The notes beneath the pieces were generated by a model, which worked only from the letters and a program-made list of their open reading frames with translations, was not told the DNA's origin and made no database searches. From Allomyces arbusculus (Eukaryota; Blastocladiomycota; Blastocladiomycetes; Blastocladiales; Blastocladiaceae), in the NCBI GenBank assembly GCA_027604705.1, contig JADHYV010000141.1, forward strand, positions 1-26,213: DNA of 26,213 nucleotides. The letters run 5' to 3'. The position numbers and the translations under genes are program-made. This document shows positions 1,215 through 19,314 of the stretch, piece after piece. Each line of letters starts with the position of its first letter. Position 1 is the stretch's first letter.

Positions 1215-2940
1215 TGCGGCCGCCTCCATGTCTGGAACGTCCTCTCCATGTCTGAACCGGCACGTTCCAGGTCCGAAACAGCCTCATCCCGCGCCGAAAC
1301 CCGCGGTTCGTACGGTGGTGGCGGCGGAAAATCACCGCCATGCTCGTCGGCAGAAACCTGCATGATGCACCCGAAGTTGGCGAGGGCGTGAACGTCCACC
1401 TGCTGATGCGCTCGGCCGACGACGTCCATGACAACGAGCGACCCGGGGGCGGCCGGCATGCGCGCATGGGCAGCCTGGCCAGGACGGGTAGCCGGGTTGG
1501 AATATCAATCGCAGCAATATCGATCTCGATTCGTGCAATTGTCTGGGTGGAAAGGATCGACAAAGCGCGGTTGACGCCAGCGATCAGTGCTGGGGGAACT
1601 ACAGGTGCATTGGAGAGGGATGCTGACGCGGCAAGCTTGCCAAGCTTGGAATGAACGAGGGAAATTAGTGATCGCAGAGGACGAACCGCCAACCGGTGTC
1701 ACAGACCCCACGCTGTACACTTCGACTGTGTTCAAAAACAGGTCGTCAAAGAGATACACATTCGGCATCTTCATCAGGCGCAGCACCAACTTGTTGAACC
1801 CAATCGCCGATCCGACCTGAATCGATTCAATCGGGACGCGCCATTGTACTTACTGGCCGTCGGTGGCCAGCAGCTGAATGTCATCGACACAGAGCGTACG
1901 CGACTCCCACCCGAGCTGGATATCCGGGCCAATGGCGGGAGCTTGAATGTTGACTTGGACGTTGATTTTTGGAAGCAAGTCGGATGGCGACCGAAGACGC
2001 ACGCGCAGTTCCCAGCCGTTGGGGACCACGAGCACCGCACGTGGTCGAAATCTGAATAAACGCAAGTCAGTGTCAGAAAGTACTAGAAATTTGGTCGACG
2101 AGTAGACGGTGGATGGAAGGAAAGTGACAAAAAATTGAGCCAACACATCCGCACTCGCAGCACCTCGCCCATGGAACTGGTCGGATTGTTCATGGGGATG
2201 ATCCAATCGGGTTCGCCGACGTGGCGATCAGGTCCTCGGCAAGGCGGCGAAAACAAGACAAAAGAGCATATTGCTCCAACGAAAACCCGCCCTTCATCGC
2301 CGCGTGCCTTACTGACGTGTGAGTGCACTCAGGCGCTGCGAAGCCGGCAAATTGAGCAGACTCGTCCCATATCATTTTTGCCAACTCGGGGGCATACTCC
2401 TCGGCCACATCCTGCTTCTGCTTCCCCATCCGCAACTCTTATTGCGCTCATCGCCTTCACCCGCCATGACGGCCATGTCTTGCTCATACTCCTCCACCTG
2501 CCCCGCAACTTGCTGCATGTCTTCTTCGCGCGTCGAGACCGTGTCTGTACTCTTCTCTTCGGCCACAGCTTGCTCCACCTGCTCTGTTGGCCCCGCAAGC
2601 CCTCGTGCCTCATCTTCATCGTCGCTTCCGCTCGCCTCCACCTCCTGGCCTCCACCTCGCAGGCCGCGATCCGGCACGCCTCTTCTTCCCCTTCATGATC
2701 CAAAGCGCTTGTATCAATGCAACTGTCGAGCTGCGGCAAGGTCAAGAGCGTGCGATGCTGGCCGTCCATGGCCGTCTGCAGGGTCTGGCCATTGTCGCAT
2801 GCCGGATTCACTTCCGGATTTCGAAGCAGGTCCGTGACCGCGTCGACAAACCCAGCATGCACCATCGCAGCGAGAGTCTCTGAGAGGAGCGCAGCCTTGA
2901 TCGTTTCCGGAACGAGCAAATGCGTGTGAATCGCGTCGTA
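1215..2940 (-). pseudogene. Decayed inverted copy of ATPase C-terminal half
   Basis: Read from 2940 down to 1215 this matches, in order, the part of the plus-strand ATPase locus from about 10225 to 12060: the YDAIHTHLLVPETIKA block, the ankyrin-like stretch (DAVTDLLRNPEVNPACDNG), a charged Glu/Arg region, RHVGEPDWIIPMNNPTSSMG, the beta-rich block with LGWESRTLCVDDIQL, a VYLFDDLFLNTVEVYSVGSV segment, and the tail DFPPPPPYEP. The AAA+ domain itself is absent, so no Walker motifs remain. Several frame changes separate the blocks, so it is a pseudogene. It keeps an apparent intact intron acceptor (TTATTCAG before the ATTTCGACC exon) that is altered in the plus-strand copy, and it keeps the frame after DWIIP that the other copy has lost. 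Divergence from the plus copy is considerable, so the duplication is not recent. Confidence 0.75.
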
Positions 2941-3051
2941 GACGGGTGGACGCTATCAATCGGCCCGTTTCTCTTGGCATGCAAAACTGTCGCATCAGGC
3001 CGCAATATGTTGACAAAGCGGAATATCATCATATCAACGATGACAAGCAAA

Positions 3052-6688: not shown

Positions 6689-6826
6689 CAGGCTACTACC
6701 GGCCGACGCTCTCGAGCAGCTTCTCAGCAACGACAGAACGACTTGGATTCCCGCGCAGCAACGCGCGGCCAATCTTCCCGTGACTCGACCACCAAGTCTA
6801 CGCACGCACGCACACGCACGGACGCC

Positions 6827-7080
6827 ATGGCTCCGCACGCAACGATCACGCTTGCCGTCGCCGGATCGGCGTATGCGCTGACGACCATCACCTCGCTCGA
6901 CACGTGAATTCGATTCTTTTTATTGAAGCCAATACTTTGACCTTGGACACCTTCTCGTTCACGGTGAGCGAGCAAGCGTGCCTGATTGCGACCGACTCGG
7001 CCTGTCCTGAATAGGAGTTCCAGGTGGCCATCAACGGCCAGGATAAGGGTGCGTCCACGCTAATGCCGCGCCGCTGAAAG
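6827..7080 (+). pseudogene. Second broken secreted-protein fragment
   Basis: An ATG at 6827 (GACGCCATGGCTC) opens a hydrophobic leader (MAPHATITLAVAGSAYALTT) that ends at a stop at 6905. A second frame then gives TLTLDTFSFTVSEQACLIAT, an in-frame TAG at 7012, and FQVAINGQDKG before another stop. The 'TVSEQACLIATDSACPE' part pairs with 'TPTTQACLIVTDNGCAGE' of the minus-strand gene at 154-697, so both belong to one small secreted-protein family. The break between leader and body cannot be explained by a normal-sized intron (only about 25 bases are available). It is therefore called a pseudogene; function unknown. Confidence 0.5.
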
Positions 7081-7213
7081 TAGCGTGCGGCTCCAGATCA
7101 AGGCGTGACACGTTTCTGGGTTTCGCAACATTGGGAAAACGTCGCCGTCGGCGGGCGGCTGCGACCCTACTTCACGAAGTTGGCCCACTCGAACGATGCT
7201 CAATCGAGCTGGA

Positions 7214-7271
7214 GGTGCTCAATCCATGCTAATCGGCCCTCGATTAGCCGATTCAGAATCAATTGAGCACC
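7214..7271. repeat. Nested inverted repeat (hairpin)
   Basis: GGTGCTCAAT at 7214-7223 pairs with ATTGAGCACC at 7262-7271. Inside it, AATCGGC at 7231-7237 pairs with GCCGATT at 7247-7253, giving a two-tier stem of 10 and 7 base pairs with internal loops. ATTGAGCACC also occurs near 463-472 and 13574-13583. It could be a remnant of a small mobile element or a structured transcript part; nothing in the sequence decides. Confidence 0.6.
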
Positions 7272-7357
7272 CAGGGGAGTAAGAAAATGGCAAGGTCCGC
7301 ATTTGTCAATTTAAAAACTCTCCTGTCGATTCAGGTTCAGTTTGAGCAAATTACGTC

Positions 7358-7447
7358 TCGATTGACACCCTTGCAAGTCGATTGACCTCCACCCCATATC
7401 GATTGGCCTCCACCCCAGCTCGATTGACCTCTACCCATGCTCGATTA
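7358..7447. repeat. 21-nt tandem repeat (TCGATTGACCTCCACCCC-like)
   Basis: TCGATT begins at 7358, 7378, 7399, 7420 and 7441, giving about four units of 20-21 bases that drift gradually. On the minus strand the units read as a seven-residue repeat (VEVNRxG), but no credible gene contains it. It ends just before a CTCAG acceptor-like site at the start of the third ATPase-tail copy, so it may have lain in an intron of that former gene. Confidence 0.7.
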
Positions 7448-7449
7448 AT

Positions 7450-8133
7450 CTCAGGCGCGTGCCCATCGACTCCATCCGTCTCAACTCGACCGTCGGCTTC
7501 CACAAGGTTGTGGTGCACCTGACCTAGGTGAAAACACGGTGCTTTTTGGCAAGCTGTTCCTCGACATGGTCGAGATGCGCCTGGTGTCCCCAATCGACGC
7601 GCCCGCTGCACCGTTGTAGCCGGCGACGGAACCCGTTACTGCACAGCTCGCTGGCTGCACCTTCCGGGCCTTCTCCAAGTTCGACGAGACTGTTGCGTCT
7701 GCATCGTCTGGCCCGCCCCTTCTCGCAGCTCCCGCGTCGTACGAGGCGAATGCGCTGCACGCCGTAGACACTCTCCACCCGGACAATCGCACTGTCATGG
7801 ACCCGCAATGGGCAAACATCCACGTGACCGCGGCGACGGCAGCTCGGGCACCCGAGGTCGTGCCTGTGCGTGCATAGCAGCCGACAGCTGGAATGCAAAT
7901 GGGCATGGACGATTTGGGCAACTAAATCAGCAAATGGACGTCCACAGCGAGTTGCCGCCGCCACCTTACGCGTCACCGGCTCCAGGAGGCAGGACGAAGC
8001 TATTACGGACCTCGAGGAGGTGGCTCGGACAATGGAGCGGTCTGTGCAGCGCTTGATAGCGACATTCCGGCCCTGGAACCATCTGAGCAGCAGGCCGCTC
8101 TGGCCATCTAGTCGCGCAGCTGATGGCTGTTGA
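7450..8133 (+). pseudogene. Third decayed copy of ATPase beta/PPxY tail
   Basis: The sequence matches only the last part of the ATPase locus. RVPIDSIRLNSTVGFHKVVV corresponds to RVPVEPVQIGSALGFNKLSL of the 9-12 kb locus, LFLDMVEMRLVSPI to LYLNTVKVYRVESVAPI, VDTLHPDNRTVMDPQW to VDPIHPDDRTIRDPRW, and ELPPPPYASP to DFPPPPPYEP. After the PPPPY motif it reads DEAITDLEEVARTMERSVQ, which matches DEAVSDLERAGSDMERTFQ of the inverted copy at 1.2 kb, so a short C-terminal coiled coil is an old part of the tail. In-frame stops (for example the TAG after VVVHLT near 7524) and frame changes show that it is no longer coding. The block between the MDD(L/V)G motif and the PPPPY motif is shortened. Confidence 0.7.
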
Positions 8134-8767: not shown

Positions 8768-8813
8768 GAGAAGAGAAGAGAAGAGAAGAGAAGAGAAGAG
8801 AAGAGAAGAAGAG
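8768..8813. repeat. (AAGAG)n microsatellite
   Basis: About eight uninterrupted AAGAG units followed by AAGAAGAG, located some 430 bases upstream of the probable ATPase start. It is likely to vary in length between strains. Confidence 0.95.
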
Positions 8814-9243: not shown

Positions 9244-11014
9244 ATGCGGGAGCACGACGCGCTGGCAGCGGCTGTGCTCTCCAAGGCCACGATGATTCAC
9301 CAAAACCTCGACGCCAACTTCATCGGCCGCGATGAATACATCCGTGTGCTCCTTCTCGGCCTCCTCACGGGTCAGAACGTGCTCGTTCTCGGTCCCCCCG
9401 GTACCGCCAAGACGGCAGTCATCAGTGATTTCTTTGCTCGCATCAAGGCCGTGTCGACAGTAACGCATGGCGGGCGTGACTGGTCCAGCACGCACTTGCA
9501 AGAACTGATTGGTACCATGTCGGAGATCGTCGCAGTTGATGATGTCTTCGAGGTCAAGAGCAAGGTTTGCTCAATCTGGATCAGCTTGCTCGACCAGCGT
9601 TTGTTTTGCCAAGGATCGGCGCAGTTGCATTTTGTGGCGGCGACGTCCGACCAAATACCTTTTGATCCGGACCACGTGCGGCTCCTCGACCGATTCCCAC
9701 TTCGCGTTTTTGTCGATGGGCTCGACGACGAGAGGCTCGACCTTTTGCTGGATGCATCCCCCCCACTGGGCCGGAATCGCGCTGCAGCGCAAGCTGAGTC
9801 TGACGTGACCCAACTAGACTTCAGGACCGATGTGTATGCGCTCCTCGATGCAGTCAACGAGGCTCCTGCGTTGCCTTTACCTATTGACGTCAAGGCCATG
9901 ATCCTCGATTATGCCCGCTTTGCCAATGGGCTCAACTTGACGGGCGAAGCATCGCCTTCGCCCAAGGTCGTGCAGACGCAATCGCGCGAAGTTTATTGCA
10001 GCAACGTGATTACGAACCGCGGCATTGTTGCGTTTTCGGGCACGTTGCGCGTCATTGCCTTTTTACACGGCCGCGGCTCGACTCCATGTGCCCTCGACGT
10101 GTTTCCGCTCACTTACATGTCTTGGCACACCGCGGCGCAGCGTAAAGTGGTCGCTGCCAGGATGCTTGACAAGTTGCACGATGCACTGCCCGCACTCATC
10201 GAGAACAACGGTGCTGATTGGGGCTACGACGCGATTCGCACCCATTTGTTCATTCCGGACGCTATCAAGGCCATGCTCTACTCGCAAATTCTCGCCGATA
10301 TGGTGCAATTTGGGCTCGCGGATGCGGTCGTGGACCTGCTTCGAATTCCAGACGTGGATCCGTCGCACAACAGTGGCTTATTGCTGCAGGCGGCCATGGA
10401 CGGCCAGCATCACTCGCTCTTGTCCATGCTGCGGCTCGACAGCCGGATCGATACAACCGCGTTGGATCAACATGAGGAGGAGGAAGCGCGCCAACTCGCA
10501 GTCCGTGATGAGGAGACTCAAGACGAGGGGAAGAGCGGGTGCGAGAGTGAAGTCGAGGCGCGGGAGATCGCATTTCCGACTGGAGACGACGTGGACAAGG
10601 CAGTGGGCGGAGACAGTTTTAGAACAATTGCGGCGAGCGAAGAGGGCGCGCAACAAGTTATGGCGAAGGTGGAGGAGCAGAAGCAGGTTTTACCAGTCGT
10701 GGTGGGCGAATTTGAAACGCGAGGAGAGAAGCGGGTGGAGAAGCAGGAGCAGGACGCGGCCGAGGAGCGTGCGCTCGAGTTGGCGGAAAAAATGCTCGAT
10801 GGGACTCGTCCGCCCGATTTGCCGGCGCTGCAGCGCCTGAGCACTCTCGCAAGCGAACGAGGTACGCGGTGGGCAGGCAGGCCCTCACCAAGTCGTCTTG
10901 GAACCTCAAAGCTCACGCTCGCCTTGACCTCTCATAGACGACTTGATCACGCTCTCGGCGGCAAAGGTGTATCACGGCCGACACGTCGGTGAAGATGACT
11001 GGATCATCCCGTGA
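9244..11014 (+). CDS. MoxR/RavA-like AAA+ ATPase with ankyrin-like and Glu-rich regions
   Basis: Exons 9244-10861 and 10938-11014 (intron GTACGC...TCATAG, 76 nt) give 564 residues ending at TGA 11012-11014. The N-terminal third is a MoxR/RavA-type AAA+ module: FIGRDEYIRVLLLGLLTGQN, Walker A GPPGTAKT (50-57), Walker B region VAVDDVF (Asp99, Asp100), sensor-1 region AATSDQIP (Asp136), and LLDRFPLR with Arg150. Such ATPases usually act as chaperone-like remodellers and in bacteria are paired with VWA-domain proteins; no VWA domain is seen here. Two positions differ from the usual family: Walker B Glu is Asp, and the sensor-1 Asn is Asp. Residues about 355-400 look like degenerate ankyrin repeats (DLLRIPDVDPSHNSG...AAMDGQHHSLL). 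Residues about 405-515 are Glu-rich and probably coiled coil. The ATG at 9244 is my choice; 8896 is possible. In the inverted copy the frame continues past DWIIP into the beta-rich tail, so the stop here may be secondary. Confidence 0.7.
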
Positions 11015-12062
11015 GCGATCCGACCAGCTTGATGGGCGAGGCGCTGCGAGTTCGCGTGTGCTGGCTCAATGTATGTCACACCTTCATCTCATCCGCCCAT
11101 CAGCTCGAGGATCATCGCGGCATTTAACTGACGCTCTGAATCACTTCGGATTTCGACAACGGCGCTCCTGGTCCCCAACGGCTCGTGGGAGCTGCGCGTG
11201 CGGCTCAAGTCGCCATCCTACCGGCTTCCGAAAAACAACGTTGAAGTCACCCTCCAAGCCCCAGTCATTGGCCCGGAAAACCAACTCGGGTGGGAGTCCC
11301 GCACGATCTGCGTCGACGACGTGGGAGTCCCGCACGATCTGCGTCGACGACATTCAGCTGCCGTCTACAGACGACCAGCACGTGCAATGGCGCGTACCGG
11401 TTGAACCCGTCCAAATTGGATCGGCGCTCGGATTCAACAAGCTCTCGTTGGGCCTGATGAAGATGCCGAACGTGTATCACTTCGACGATTTGTATTTGAA
11501 CACGGTCAAAGTGTACCGCGTGGAGTCTGTGGCACCGATTGGCGGCTCGTCGTCGTCGTCGGCCCTTGATTTTCCACCAGTTCTGTCCAAGCTCAGCAAT
11601 ATTGCCGCGTCCGCGTCTTTGTCCAACGCACCTGTCGTCATTGCCCCAGCTCTCATTACCGGCGCGCAATCGCACTTCGTCGATCCTATTCACCCAGACG
11701 ATCGCACGATTCGGGACCCGCGGTGGGACGATCTTGCTGCGACTGCCGGGCCAAATCGCTCACCCGTTGACGCCGGGCCCACGCGCACATGGCGGCCGTC
11801 CCCTGGGTCGCACATTGTCATGGACGACGTCGGCCGAGCACATCAGCAGGTGGACGTTCGCGCCCTCGCCAACGTCGGGCGCATCCTGCAGGGTTCAGCC
11901 AACGAGCATGGCGTCGATTTTCCGCCGCCACCACCGTACGAGCCGCGGGATTCTCTGCAAGGGGAGGCTGCTCAGAGCCCGGGCCTGGGGGTGGCGGATT
12001 CGGACATGGACGAGGGCGAGAACGTTCCGGACTTGGAGGCGGCAATGCCAGGCCTGGAATAG
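11015..12062 (+). pseudogene. Beta-rich PPxY tail of the ATPase locus, out of frame
   Basis: This continues the ATPase locus in the same order as the inverted copy at 1.2-2.2 kb. Compared with that copy, one base is missing at about 11010 (after DWIIP), the acceptor before the ATTTCG exon near 11150 reads CGG where the inverted copy has CAG, and a perfect 31-bp tandem duplication at 11290-11351 shifts the frame in LGWESRTICVDD. From 11352 to the TAG at 12060 the frame is open. It contains RVPVEPVQIGSALGFNKLSL, MPNVYHFDDLYLNTVKVYRV, a Ser/Ala/Pro linker, MDDVGRAHQQVDVRALANVG and DFPPPPPYEP near the end. The FDDLYLNTVKVY part recalls jelly-roll or carbohydrate-binding-like beta domains, but this is weak. 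PPPY is the classical ligand of WW domains, including Nedd4/Rsp5-type ubiquitin ligases. The tail may have been part of the ATPase protein or a separate neighbour gene. Confidence 0.6.
11290..11351. repeat. Perfect 31-bp tandem duplication
   Basis: The 31 bases at 11290-11320 (starting GTGGGAGTCCCGCACG) are repeated without a mismatch at 11321-11351. The length is not a multiple of three, so the coding frame shifts. The inverted copy at 1.9 kb has only one unit. Confidence 0.97.
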
Positions 12063-12859
12063 AGTGAGTCAGCCGTTTTTGTGGAAGAAAGTGCCGTTCA
12101 GTCCTCCGAAACGAGGCGCGAAGAGTCGCTGGTGTCTTATGCAATATTGTGGTTCGTTGGATAGTCTCTGTCCAATATTTCGCTCCAACGTATGTTCATT
12201 ATCACAGAATATGTGTGTTGGCGATCATCCTGCGGGTTAAACACAAACGAGGCTGGAGCCGTCCACTTTTTCACAAATGCCAGTACCTTGCGCAGGAAGC
12301 GGCTCCAGACGGTGAAGAGCAATGGCGCCTGTTTGAAAATCAGGAAGCGGAACGGCCCGCTCTTGTAAAGCATCCTGACCAATGGGACTGGGCGAGTTGC
12401 GTGACGGGCGCGATTGTTCCTGCAAAGCGCAATTTGATGCATCAGGATCCAAAGAAAAAGCATTGGGTCATGTAGCTTCTCTACCCTCTTTTATTGTTCT
12501 CGGATTAAACCCAATCCCCTTTAGATCTCACAATGTGAACTGCAGAAAAGCTTCGTGCATCCTTCTTCGTTCTCGACTTGACTGACCTGGGACGGGTTGC
12601 TGCTGCGTGAATATGCCTGTTCCCATTTCACACAGTAGCAACAATGATTGACCCAAGATGCAGGAATGTCGCTGCGCAAACAAGAGCCGGAGGGAAATCA
12701 GGGAAATTAGTGGTGATAGCTCGACTCACCGGAGTGTGTAATCATGGAGGTGCAGACGCTGTTCGTGGATGCTTCAGAGGCAAGTCGGGCAACGATGTGG
12801 CCCTGTTGCAAATACAGTACTCCCATATCAATCATTGACGCCGGCCCGCTGACTTGCCA
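12063..12859. other. Intergenic stretch, nothing recognised
   Basis: Two overlapping open frames of 108 codons on opposite strands (12149-12475 plus, 12137-12463 minus) cover the first half, but neither shows domains, a good start context or relation to a known family. The remainder is less GC-rich and has no open frame of note. Confidence 0.4.
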
Positions 12860-13190
12860 AGTCCGTTGACGGCCCACGCTTGGCCCTCCTCGACACCAAC
12901 CCTACGTCATCCTCGTCATCGGCATGCCGCCCGCGCTTCTACTTGTCGCGTTTGTCGACATACGACAGCACGTCCGCATTGTCATTGACCGCCCCACCAA
13001 GATCCTCGTTCAGGTTGAGCAACTCGTTGGTGAGCCCGACGCGCTCGAGCTGACTGCGCTTCTTCTTGTGCAGCGCATCCAGTTGACACACAGCATTTGA
13101 TATTCTCGTACGCCTGCCGGTCGGCGAAATGCTTGTGACTCGAATCGGCAGCGGCCGATTTCCTGCGCACCAGGACTTCCGCCAGCTTCA
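12860..13190 (-). pseudogene. Partial duplicate of neuroguidin C-terminal region
   Basis: About 330 bases match the minus-strand neuroguidin coding sequence at 13685-14020 closely by eye, from the HKHFADRQAYE block through the region that in the intact gene reads VGLTNELLNLNEDFGG and SYVDKRGKKKRGRHADDED. Stops and frame changes break it, and both ends are abrupt. It lies about 400 bases beyond the 3' end of the intact gene in the same orientation, so it is a tandem partial duplicate. It is much better preserved and longer than the scrap at 800-871. Confidence 0.88.
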
Positions 13191-13590: not shown

Positions 13591-14797
13591 TCATTGACGA
13601 CCCGCCGACTTTCGGCGCTTGTTTTCGCGCCCGACTGTGCGATGCAAACTGCGCTTGGCCGCCGTCTTGCGCTGCGCAAAGTCAGACGACGGCCCGCGCT
13701 TGGTGCTCCTCGACACCAGATCCACATCATCCTCGTCATCAGCATGCCGCCCGCGCTTCTTCTTGCCGCGTTTGTCGACATACGACAGTACGTCCTCGAA
13801 ATCCGCCGCATCGTCATCGACCGCTCCACCGAAATCCTCGTTCAGGTTGAGCAACTCGTTGGTGAGCCCAACGCGCTCGAGCTGACTGCGCTTCTTCTTA
13901 TCCGCGCGCGTCCAATTGACACGCAGCATGTGCTCCTCCTCGTACGCCTGCCGGTCGGCAAAATGCTTGTGAATCGACTCGGCGGCCGCCGAATCGCTGC
14001 GCACCACATCTGACCCGCGCACTTCTGGCGCATCGCCAAATTCGTCCTCGAGGTCGCGAGCGAGTCGAGCTGACGCAGCCGACCGTAATGCGCGCTGGGC
14101 CGCACGGTCGGCTTTCCGGCCGTCGTCATAGTGGACCGGCGCGAGTTTCGGCGGGCGGTAGACGCCCGTGCGTGACGTGGTCCCGCCCTTAGCGTCCTCC
14201 TCGTCGGCGTCAGACGCGGACGCGTCGGCACCCTCGTTTTCATCGTCGTCGTCGTCAAAGTTGGCCACGTTGGGCTTGAACGAGAGCGCGTCCGACGACG
14301 CGGAGGTCGATTCGGTCGCCTTGAGCAACTTGTCGATGCGGTACTTGAGTTTGGTCTCCATGGGCTTGATTTTCTCCATGATCACGCGCAGGTCGAGGAG
14401 CGAGTCGAGCGCGGGCGACGCGGTCGGCGCCTGGCCCGCGAGTTTCGTGTGCGCAACGTGGCAGAGGCCCGTAAGATAGGTCATCATGCAATCTGAGGAG
14501 CACGGGATGCAGTCAGCGAGCCGGTCTTGGGCCATCGTGAACGGGGCGGGGCGCGCGTACGGTTCTTGACTTCGAGGAACGACAGACCCTTGGCTGAGGG
14601 CTTGATCCTGGTCGTCACGATCAATGTGGCGTCAGCCCACCATATTTGAGTCTCTGAGTCGTTCAATCGGTCGTGATTGCCACGCACTTATCCGTGAGCG
14701 GTTCGACGGCGGTCTTGACTTGCAGCGCGGCATCCTGGAGGTCCTTGAGCAGCGCCTGAAACTCTTGCCTCGGGTCCTTGATCGATGTTGCTGCCAT
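13591..14797 (-). CDS. NGDN: Neuroguidin / Lcp5-like Sas10 family protein
   Basis: Three exons on the minus strand (14797-14688, 14607-14561, 14492-13591) with introns of 80 and 68 nt give 352 residues, close to the 315 of human neuroguidin. The family (yeast Lcp5) belongs to the small-subunit processome in the nucleolus and is needed for 18S rRNA maturation. Joining the exons restores the family hallmark KGLSFLEVKNH (residues 43-53), split by the second intron just before the His codon. It is followed by a Sas10-type helical region with VIMEKIKPMETKLKYRIDKL, an acidic disordered part (DDDDENEGADASASD), YRPPKLAPVHYDD, the FADRQAYEEEHMLRVNWTRADKKK block, and a basic tail (KKRGRH, ENKRRKSAGRQ) fitting nucleolar import. 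The start ATG at 14797 is the first in frame. The gene diverges from the hydrolase at 15114 across about 316 bp. Parts of its C-terminal coding region are duplicated at 12860-13190 and 800-871. Confidence 0.93.
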
Positions 14798-18366: not shown

Positions 18367-19314
18367 ATGAACACGAACAACAGCTCAAGCACCAATGATC
18401 GCAAGCGCCCAAGGGACGCGACCGACAGCGACTTGGCACGCGAGGACGTGGCTGCGGACCCCAGCTTGGAGCCCTTCGCATTCGTCCTGTCACCGCCCGT
18501 CACGCTCCCGCCACTTCTCCCGCTTTCGGCAACCGATGCCGCCGTCGACCCGGCAACGCAAGCAATTTTACAATGGCAAGGATCCGTTTCGATCACGTTT
18601 GCACCCGCACTCGCTCGCGACGCGACGCTGCACGGAACGCTGTCCGTGACCAACCCGCGGCTCTACTTTGTACCCGCTGACGGGCCCGGGATCGTACTCG
18701 CCTACCGCGCGATTGTCATGCACGCGGTCCAAGGCGGGTCCGACCGCGCAATCTATTGCCAGCTCGGCGTCAGTCTGAAGGCACTGATTGGAGCTGCGTG
18801 GCGCGCGGCTGGTGGACAAGGAGTGGAGAGCGCTGAAGAGGATGAAGAGGAGGAGGACGACGAGTTCTCGGAACTGTGGATCAAGCCCGAAGATCCAGAC
18901 CAGCGTACGTTTTGCTGCCGTAGGCAGTTTGAGATGGACATGAACTGATCGTTTTCAATTTCTAGTGGACGCGCTCTTCTCTGACCTCTCAATGTGCTCG
19001 TCAATGCACCCGGACCCTGTCAACGAGGAAGAAGACGAAGACGGGATGATGACCGCGTTTATGGGCGGTGGTGATGGTACACATTACTCAAGCTCGCGTT
19101 TGCCGCCCTCTCTCAAGACCCCTCACTTTGACGCTCTTGGTGCCGTGTAGGCTTCTTTACAGCTGACAACATTGACGACATGTCTGTTGTCGACCTGTCG
19201 TCCGAGGGCGCTGCCAACCTGGCACGCTTCGAGGCCATGGCTGACGCGGCCGCAGCGCAGTTTGAGGACGCAGAAGAGGACGAGGACGAGGACGAGGATG
19301 CCAACGCAAACTGA
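18367..19314 (+). CDS. CLNS1A: pICln, methylosome / snRNP assembly chaperone
   Basis: Exons 18367-18904, 18966-19076 and 19151-19314 (introns 61 and 74 nt) give 270 residues. pICln binds Sm proteins and hands them to the PRMT5 methylosome and SMN machinery during spliceosomal snRNP assembly in the cytosol. The PH-like fold is visible: GSVSITFAPALARDATLHGT, LSVTNPRLYFVPADGPGIVL, a conserved 'yr.I.mHAV' strand with AIYCQLG, then an acidic run (EEDEEEEDDEFSELW) and the strand WIKPEDP. The exon 1/2 junction creates LDALFSDLSMCSSMHPDP, matching the family's C-terminal 'ally.alsec..LHPDP' helix. Exon 3 carries LSSEGAANLARFEAM, matching the 'Ls.eGqa.LerlE' motif, before an acidic end. The 70-residue N-terminal extension is longer than usual. 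It is transcribed toward PRP17 with 192 bp between them. Confidence 0.93.

What the first reader, a model, noticed from the sequence alone, without database searches (positions are those of the whole stretch)
9244..12062. MoxR/RavA-like AAA+ ATPase joined or linked to ankyrin-like repeats, Glu-rich coil and a beta-rich PPxY tail
Seen: a MoxR-type AAA+ module (Walker A GPPGTAKT, LLDRF) followed by ankyrin-like repeats, a Glu-rich segment, and then, in the same order in two copies, a beta-rich tail ending in DFPPPPPYEP. Known: MoxR/RavA ATPases are mainly prokaryotic and usually work with a VWA-domain partner. Inference: the lineage acquired a MoxR ATPase, perhaps by transfer, and gave it a new adaptor tail able to bind WW-domain proteins such as Rsp5/Nedd4 ligases. 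I do not know this architecture from any described system.
Basis: partly seen in the sequence, partly recalled or inferred. Interest (0 to 1): 0.72.

Follow-up and report, generated by a model that had tools for sequence, protein, structure and literature searches.

The report
Decayed RavA-type ATPase with jelly-roll tail
This stretch of a eukaryotic genome holds worn-out copies of an unusual gene in which a bacterial-type RavA/MoxR motor protein was spliced to a jelly-roll tail; a sister copy with no damage visible to us lies elsewhere in the same genome and carries the same fusion.

Summary
The AAA+ module is real and RavA/MoxR-type: Pfam bpMoxR E 1.1e-19. A profile of three paralogues finds RavA in PDB at 2.8e-31, with no midasin or MCM at E<=0.01. 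The genome search gave four ATPase loci. At C2 a paralogue without visible damage has ATPase, helical region, acidic stretch and beta-rich tail, with an intron placed as in the window, so the fusion looks like a family trait.

The window copies are decayed. The main ATPase is 18 residues short between Walker A and Walker B, has Asp for the Walker B Glu and the sensor-1 Asn, and keeps 24 of 50 conserved columns (three paralogues 34-38). Its tail has a frameshift, a lost splice acceptor and a 31-bp duplication. The inverted copy lacks the ATPase; a third tail remnant lies near 7.5-8.0 kb.

The tail models as a jelly-roll and resembles the tail of a probable F-box protein. PPxY was not found at C2 and shows no detectable constraint, so the WW-ligand idea is not supported. 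Ankyrin repeats are unproven. Spread among eukaryotes could not be tested.

The parts
9244..10861 (+). exon 1 of main locus: RavA-type AAA+ domain (degenerate), AAA lid, helical ankyrin-like stretch, acidic coil; start codon chosen by comparison with paralogues
9391..9414 (+). Walker A GPPGTAKT (retained)
9450..9530 (+). stretch between Walker A and Walker B that is 18 residues shorter than in the paralogues (spacing 43 against 61); the bpMoxR profile jumps from position 57 to 98 here; bounds approximate
10240..10450 (+). helical ankyrin-like stretch (31-residue self-repeat measured in the C2 paralogue; no Pfam Ank match); bounds approximate
10862..10937 (+). intron 1 (GT..AG, inferred), placed as in the C2 paralogue
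10938..11070 (+). exon 2, first part of tail; frame broken near 11.01 kb
11071..11149 (+). intron 2 (inferred); the acceptor AG seen in copy 1, C2 and C50 is absent here
   Evidence: copy 1
11150..11545 (+). exon 3, jelly-roll domain, interrupted by the 31-bp duplication
   Evidence: model made on the C2 tail
11290..11351 (+). 31-bp perfect tandem duplication, shifts the frame
11916..11945 (+). DFPPPPPYEP (PPxY)
   Evidence: no detectable constraint
1219..2974 (-). copy 1: truncated inverted copy (helical/acidic part plus tail, no ATPase), with stops, frameshifts and altered intron-2 donor; bounds approximate
1304..1333 (-). DFPPPPPYEP in copy 1
7525..8000 (+). third tail remnant with stops and PPPPY; bounds approximate

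Best explanation
The finding is a decayed member of a small family of RavA-type MoxR AAA+ ATPases in a eukaryote. The family architecture, seen without visible damage at C2, is AAA+ domain and lid, helical (possibly ankyrin-like) segment, short acidic linker, and a C-terminal jelly-roll domain of the kind attached to a probable F-box protein of the same genome. Likely working (inferred): the C2-type protein forms a RavA-like ATPase ring whose jelly-roll domains, placed like the LARA domains of RavA, hold the client (a protein or a glycan on it) while ATP hydrolysis remodels it. The window's main copy has lost catalytic residues, some core sequence and a readable tail; it is a pseudogene or at most yields a tail-less, hydrolysis-dead subunit. 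The PPxY end is not a demonstrated part of the mechanism.
For: Shown: bpMoxR match; paralogues C19:88k, C2 and C19:51k score 157, 151 and 148 bits over one continuous stretch against 40 and 34 bits in two stretches for the window copy. RavA is the best PDB relative by sequence and for the C2 model (pLDDT 86.9; Foldseek E 3.9e-17). Intron 1 lies at the matching place in window and C2 (donor AACGAG|GTACG in both); the intron-2 position after W-L-N/D is shared by window, C2 and C50. Jelly-roll codons of main versus copy 1 show fewer nonsynonymous than synonymous changes per site (28 on 78.7 S sites, 32 on 239.3 N sites, p 4.5e-5), so the tail was once useful. Decay: Walker A-B spacing 43 against 61; 24 of 50 conserved columns kept against 37, 38 and 34; distance from the family's first fork 1.15 for the window copy against about 0.64-0.76 for the three others; frameshift, acceptor loss and duplication. 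Jelly-roll: C2 tail model pLDDT 77.6, pTM 0.66, Foldseek top hit meprin beta, with carbohydrate-binding modules lower down. RavA hexamers and LARA contacts with LdcI: PMC6987120 (passages).
Against: The main exon 1 frame is still open (740 codons), and omega for window versus C2 is 0.34, so the main copy may still make a protein; no tail was found at C19:88k, so lack of a tail need not mean death. Foldseek E for the tail is only 0.011, virus-capsid (VP2) chains rank 3 and 4, and none of the 50 rows shown is described as a PP2 or F-box-associated structure. Pfam PP2 is E 0.11 and F-box-like E 0.004, both under cut-off, and C2's own tail matches no Pfam family. The helical/acidic block shows no significant constraint (p 0.16). 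The C2 gene model is inferred from DNA, not from transcripts. Oligomer, client and location are not shown.
Confidence: 0.68

Rival explanations
1. The main window locus is a working pseudo-ATPase: exon 1 plus part of exon 2 is translated as a tail-less, hydrolysis-dead subunit that joins rings of the C2 or C19 proteins and tunes them.
For: Exon 1 open without stops; Walker A, LLDRF, sensor-2 Arg and lid Trp retained; omega 0.34 versus C2; C19:88k has a 643-codon frame and no tail was found there.
Against: 18 core residues fewer than the paralogues; 24 of 50 conserved columns; longest branch of the four. Omega on the pair mixes older constraint with recent decay. Three tail lesions beside it.
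Confidence: 0.22
2. One reading: an intact ATPase plus ankyrin plus PPxY adaptor that recruits WW-domain ubiquitin ligases.
For: PPxY in the three tails of the contig. A separate ORF 1.4 kb beyond the C19:88k frame also reads PPFY twice, though nothing shows that it belongs to that gene.
Against: All three tails are broken; no PPxY found at C2; PPxY block shows no detectable constraint (p 0.45); no Ank match.
Confidence: 0.05
3. The lesions are assembly errors and the main locus is intact.
For: No reads were available; indels and short tandem duplications can be assembly errors.
Against: Lesions of different kinds, including substitutions at catalytic positions and a splice site; copy 1 has its own set; other frames of the contig, such as the 486-aa WD40 frame, are open.
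Confidence: 0.08

Closest known systems
RavA (E. coli MoxR AAA+ ATPase, works with ViaA and LdcI)
   Same: AAA+ core, lid with the conserved Trp, best PDB match by sequence and fold; a separate beta-rich domain C-terminal to the AAA+ module
   Different: Tail fold not shown to be LARA; no CoxE/ViaA-type VWA found; eukaryotic with introns; equivalence of the helical segment to RavA's triple-helical domain not tested
bpMoxR of MoxR-vWA-beta-propeller ternary conflict systems (PMC7159879, passages seen)
   Same: Pfam PF20030 is the top match; three bacterial relatives found here lie beside bpX domains (L037, L041, L051) and the eukaryotic clade falls with them in a weakly supported group of 17 rows (77/84)
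   Different: No bpX or VWA domain in the neighbouring ORFs scanned; fused to a jelly-roll; role in conflict untested
Midasin and VWA8 (eukaryotic MoxR-clade proteins)
   Same: AAA+ of the MoxR clade in eukaryotes (clade list from passages of PMC7159879; VWA8 from passages of PMC10743472)
   Different: A separate midasin-like frame exists at C88 and scores under the bpMoxR cut-off; the window family has one AAA+ domain and no VWA match
F-box proteins with PP2 or F-box-associated jelly-roll (plant Nictaba type, animal FBXO2 type; recalled)
   Same: Tail related to the C50 tail that follows an F-box-like segment; same intron after W-L-N/D
   Different: Here the domain follows an ATPase, not an F-box; Pfam support for PP2 is only E 0.11, for C50 alone

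Membership tests
RavA/MoxR AAA+ ATPase | AAA+ core matching MoxR/RavA profiles better than other AAA+ families | tested here: met
RavA/MoxR AAA+ ATPase | catalytic set (Walker A, Walker B DE, sensor-1 Asn, DRF, sensor-2 Arg) in the window copy | tested here: not met
   Walker A, DRF and sensor-2 Arg kept; Walker B DD, sensor-1 Asp, core shorter by 18. Full set present in C2 and C19:88k. Motif roles recalled.
RavA/MoxR AAA+ ATPase | VWA partner (CoxE/ViaA type) | tested here: inconclusive
   No VWA_CoxE at E<=0.01; the control rings in 8 of 14 genomes, over cut-off in 6. VWA_2: four matches at three loci: Ssl1 (C94), midasin frame (C88) and an unassigned protein at C27. Intron-split genes could be missed.
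RavA/MoxR AAA+ ATPase | hexameric ring, ATP hydrolysis | not testable with these tools
   needs protein
bp ternary conflict system | accompanying vWA-beta-propeller and bpX genes | tested here: inconclusive
   Ten frames of the window and ten of the C2 and C19 loci, paralogues included, showed no bpX or VWA; bpX was not sought genome-wide
Ankyrin repeat | match to Ank profiles | tested here: not met
   No Ank family in the window protein or in the C2 and C19:88k segments. phmmer against 12 Ank loci of the genome: best real query E 0.42, a shuffled query 0.22. Regex for a recalled repeat signature: 0 of 565 ORFs with two or more hits. Period-31 self-repeat and helix pairs in the model leave it possible.
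PP2/F-box-associated jelly-roll | significant profile or structure match | tested here: inconclusive
   PP2 E 0.11 for C50 only; generic jelly-roll hits for C2; PP2 genome search empty, in all 14 controls too
WW-ligand (PPxY) adaptor | PPxY conserved in intact members | tested here: not met
   none found at C2; no detectable constraint in the window copies
Midasin/MCM | best match to these families | tested here: not met

The most novel reading that the evidence does not exclude
A eukaryotic lineage took in a MoxR ATPase of the bacterial ternary conflict-system type, dispensed with its VWA co-chaperone and gave it a jelly-roll recognition domain shared with F-box proteins, making a self-contained, recognition-guided remodelling machine that links a bacterial unfoldase to ubiquitin-type quality control or defence.
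Probability: 0.2. Interest if true: 0.72.

Novelty: new variant of a known kind. Interest (0 to 1): 0.45.

Why it matters
MoxR ATPases are described as widespread throughout bacteria and archaea (PMC3893208, start of abstract in the listing), and the eukaryotic MoxR-clade proteins that I saw or recall (midasin, VWA8, dynein) are built differently. A eukaryotic RavA-type ATPase that carries its own recognition domain would be a natural test of whether the VWA partner can be replaced. None of the papers listed in my searches on MoxR or RavA with fungal, ankyrin or F-box terms appeared, by title and abstract start, to describe such a protein: 20 of 807 listed, 12 of 97, 10 of 28, 1 of 1, 1 of 1. 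Unlisted, subscription and preprint papers were not seen.

Tried and rejected
Ankyrin: Pfam scans and phmmer against 12 of the Ank loci of the same genome (64 matches) gave nothing above a shuffled control; a recalled repeat signature was found twice or more in 0 of 565 ORFs of those loci; only a 31-residue self-repeat remains.

Tail family: PDB sequence searches gave nothing useful (one weak hit, E 0.048; none; two weak hits); Pfam gave only PP2 at E 0.11 for C50 (0.16 for the shorter piece) besides a weak IPU_b_solenoid match (E 0.044 and 0.062) for copy-1 pieces; the PP2 genome search rang nowhere.

Donor lineage: 97 loci (17 bacterial; the 80 kept of 88 from the viral collection) plus 4 rows of this genome gave a clean clade for the four (100/100) on a long branch (2.81) whose attachment is weak (77/84); no donor is named. 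The first genome-contig scan found none.

Haplotig or contaminant contig: unlikely, since a WD40 stretch of this contig has one match at E<=1e-50 in the genome.

VWA partner: see the membership test. Rfam on the window at gathering scores: no match. The organism was not identified; a zoosporic fungus is only my guess.

I left the odds as they were, because the catalytic substitutions and the tail lesions carry the decay argument.

Full report
What is there. The window is the whole of contig C141 of a 25.9-Mb genome. I take the genome to be eukaryotic: it has spliceosomal-type introns (inferred), an Ssl1 (TFIIH) domain at C94 (Pfam E 1.9e-39) and a 4744-codon frame at C88 with several AAA+ modules and a VWA match, which I read as midasin. 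A WD40 stretch of the contig has one match at E<=1e-50 in the genome, so the contig is unlikely to be a duplicate haplotype.

The ATPase. Exon 1 (9244-10861) matches Pfam bpMoxR, E 1.1e-19, above the cut-off. In the whole genome the family gives 7 rows: 5 over the cut-off at 4 loci (window in two pieces, C2, C19:88k, C19:51k) and 2 under it in the C88 frame. A profile of the three paralogues finds 4 PDB sequences at E<=0.01: three of RavA (best 2.8e-31) and 2r44, listed as an uncharacterized protein. A wider profile of 31 rows, 25 of them prokaryotic or phage, also finds RavA first (8e-95), with midasin at 4e-11. The model of the C2 exon (31 rows, pLDDT 86.9, pTM 0.87) finds RavA first by fold (E 3.9e-17) and MCM later (1.7e-9).

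The window ATPase is degenerate. The bpMoxR profile jumps from position 57 to 98. From the Walker A Lys to the Walker B Asp there are 43 residues, against 61 in each of the three paralogues. Asp stands for the Walker B Glu and for the sensor-1 Asn; Walker A, LLDRF, sensor-2 Arg and lid Trp are kept (motif roles recalled). Of 50 columns conserved in at least 88% of 25 prokaryotic or phage rows (chosen by me from 97), the window keeps 24, C2 37, C19:88k 38 and the N-terminal piece of C19:51k 34; the C-terminal piece of C19:51k (4 of 50, mostly gaps) and copy 1 (no ATPase) are not comparable. From the first fork of the four, the window branch is 1.15 long, the others about 0.64-0.76.

The fusion looks real in the family. 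At C2 a 563-codon frame contains an intron donor matching that of the window (AACGAG|GTACG in both), then comes the first tail piece, then a second intron after W-L-N, then a 114-residue tail piece that ends in a stop. The intron after W-L-N/D is also in the C50 gene. Splice sites are read from DNA, not from transcripts. C19:88k is a 643-codon frame with a coiled-coil-like end, and the tail search found no tail there. C19:51k is split between two frames.

The window tails are broken. Main: a frameshift near 11.01 kb relative to copy 1, intron 2 without the acceptor AG that copy 1, C2 and C50 have, and a perfect 31-bp tandem duplication at 11290-11351. Copy 1 (minus strand, about 2974-1219; 70% identical over an alignment of 1842 columns) has no ATPase, an altered intron-2 donor, an insertion and a stop. 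A third remnant near 7.5-8.0 kb has two stops in its matched part. A 72-bp piece of the neighbouring Sas10/Utp3-like gene (weak Pfam match) beside copy 1 suggests a segmental inverted duplication.

Was the tail useful? Between main and copy 1, the jelly-roll codons (106) have 28 synonymous and 32 nonsynonymous differences on 78.7 and 239.3 sites (p 4.5e-5): constraint acted after the duplication. The helical/acidic block (98 codons) gives p 0.16 and the PPxY block (57 codons) p 0.45, so no constraint is shown there; the PPxY block is short, so this is weak evidence of absence.

What the tail is. The C2 tail piece, with a five-row alignment, models as an all-beta fold with one short helix (pLDDT 77.6, pTM 0.66). 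Foldseek's top two hits are meprin beta, the next two a virus capsid protein (VP2); carbohydrate-binding modules and toxin jelly-rolls follow; best E 0.011, none under 0.001, so only the fold class is supported. The one other relative found in the genome at E<=1 outside C2 and C141 is at C50 (29% identity, E 3.3e-5 and 2.4e-5). The C50 gene has an F-box-like segment (E 0.004, under cut-off), the tail (PP2 E 0.11, under cut-off) and ends in CVIM, which resembles a prenylation signal (the CaaX reading is recalled). I read the tail as a PP2/F-box-associated type jelly-roll, tentatively; C2's own tail matches no Pfam family.

Ankyrin, PPxY, VWA. The genome search lists 64 Ank_2 matches, none at the loci of this family, and Pfam finds none in the C2 and C19:88k segments. 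A 31-residue self-repeat in the C2 segment (score 22; next best offset 14) and helix pairs in the model leave ankyrin possible. PPxY occurs in the three broken tails and in none of the three forward frames of 3.9 kb from the end of the C2 tail; the same check found two PPFY in a separate ORF about 1.4 kb beyond C19:88k (copy 1). No VWA_CoxE was found; VWA_2 gives four matches at three loci: Ssl1 at C94, an unassigned protein at C27 (two pieces) and the midasin frame. In bacteria and viral contigs, I scanned 10 of 25 listed downstream ORFs, at 8 loci: VWA in 3 (L067, L088; L043 weak), bpX domains in 3 (L037, L041, L051), neither in 2 (L036, L053).

Mechanism. Shown: sequence class, fold models, gene layout, decay. 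Inferred: ring formation, client remodelling, jelly-roll as client holder. In RavA the LARA domains mediate the contacts with LdcI (PMC6987120, passages), a precedent for a C-terminal client-binding domain; that LARA sits on legs of the ring is recalled. The main window copy most likely does nothing, or is a dead subunit.

Literature. PMC7159879 was seen in passages only, its abstract's start in a listing: that abstract places the conflict systems preponderantly in multicellular prokaryotes, and the passages I saw name no fungal member. PMC10743472 (passages) gave VWA8. Searches listed no paper that, by title and abstract start, describes a eukaryotic RavA with such a tail; several listings were capped.

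Limits. No eukaryotic sequence collection was available, so neither the age nor the spread of the fusion is known; no transcripts; organism not identified.

Noticed in passing
G000 C50:147013-147543 (L032:4514-5044): Probable F-box protein with a related jelly-roll tail, a Pro-rich stretch and a terminal CVIM that resembles a prenylation signal.
   Followed up: partly
G000 C19:50101-51442 (L017): Another RavA-type paralogue on the minus strand, split between two frames; a C5 cytosine methylase-like ORF (Pfam E 1.2e-24) lies about 2.3 kb away (L017:9320-9811).
   Followed up: partly
L016:6643-7695: Separate ORF about 1.4 kb beyond the C19:88k ATPase frame that reads DTPPFYDTPPFYD, two PPxY motifs; relation to the ATPase unknown.
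   Followed up: no
12856-13172, 13676-14006 and 800-871: Sas10/Utp3-like gene (13591-14535, minus; weak Pfam match) with a partial duplicate beside it and a 72-bp fragment beyond copy 1, pointing to segmental inverted duplication.
   Followed up: partly
11800-11972 versus 1277-1449: The last block of the tail is less diverged at synonymous sites (dS 0.19) than the rest (0.45-0.52), perhaps gene conversion.
   Followed up: no
6800-7500: Sequence upstream of the third tail remnant gave no match to the ATPase exon and was not identified; a short ATG-led reading starts at 6827.
   Followed up: no
8768-8809: GAGAA microsatellite upstream of the main locus.
   Followed up: no
18367-18948: pICln-like gene (Pfam Voldacs, E 8.7e-13; the name pICln is recalled).
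   Followed up: no
L036, L037, L041, L051, L067, L088: RavA-type relatives in bacteria and viral contigs beside bpX domains, VWA_CoxE or a protein kinase.
   Followed up: partly
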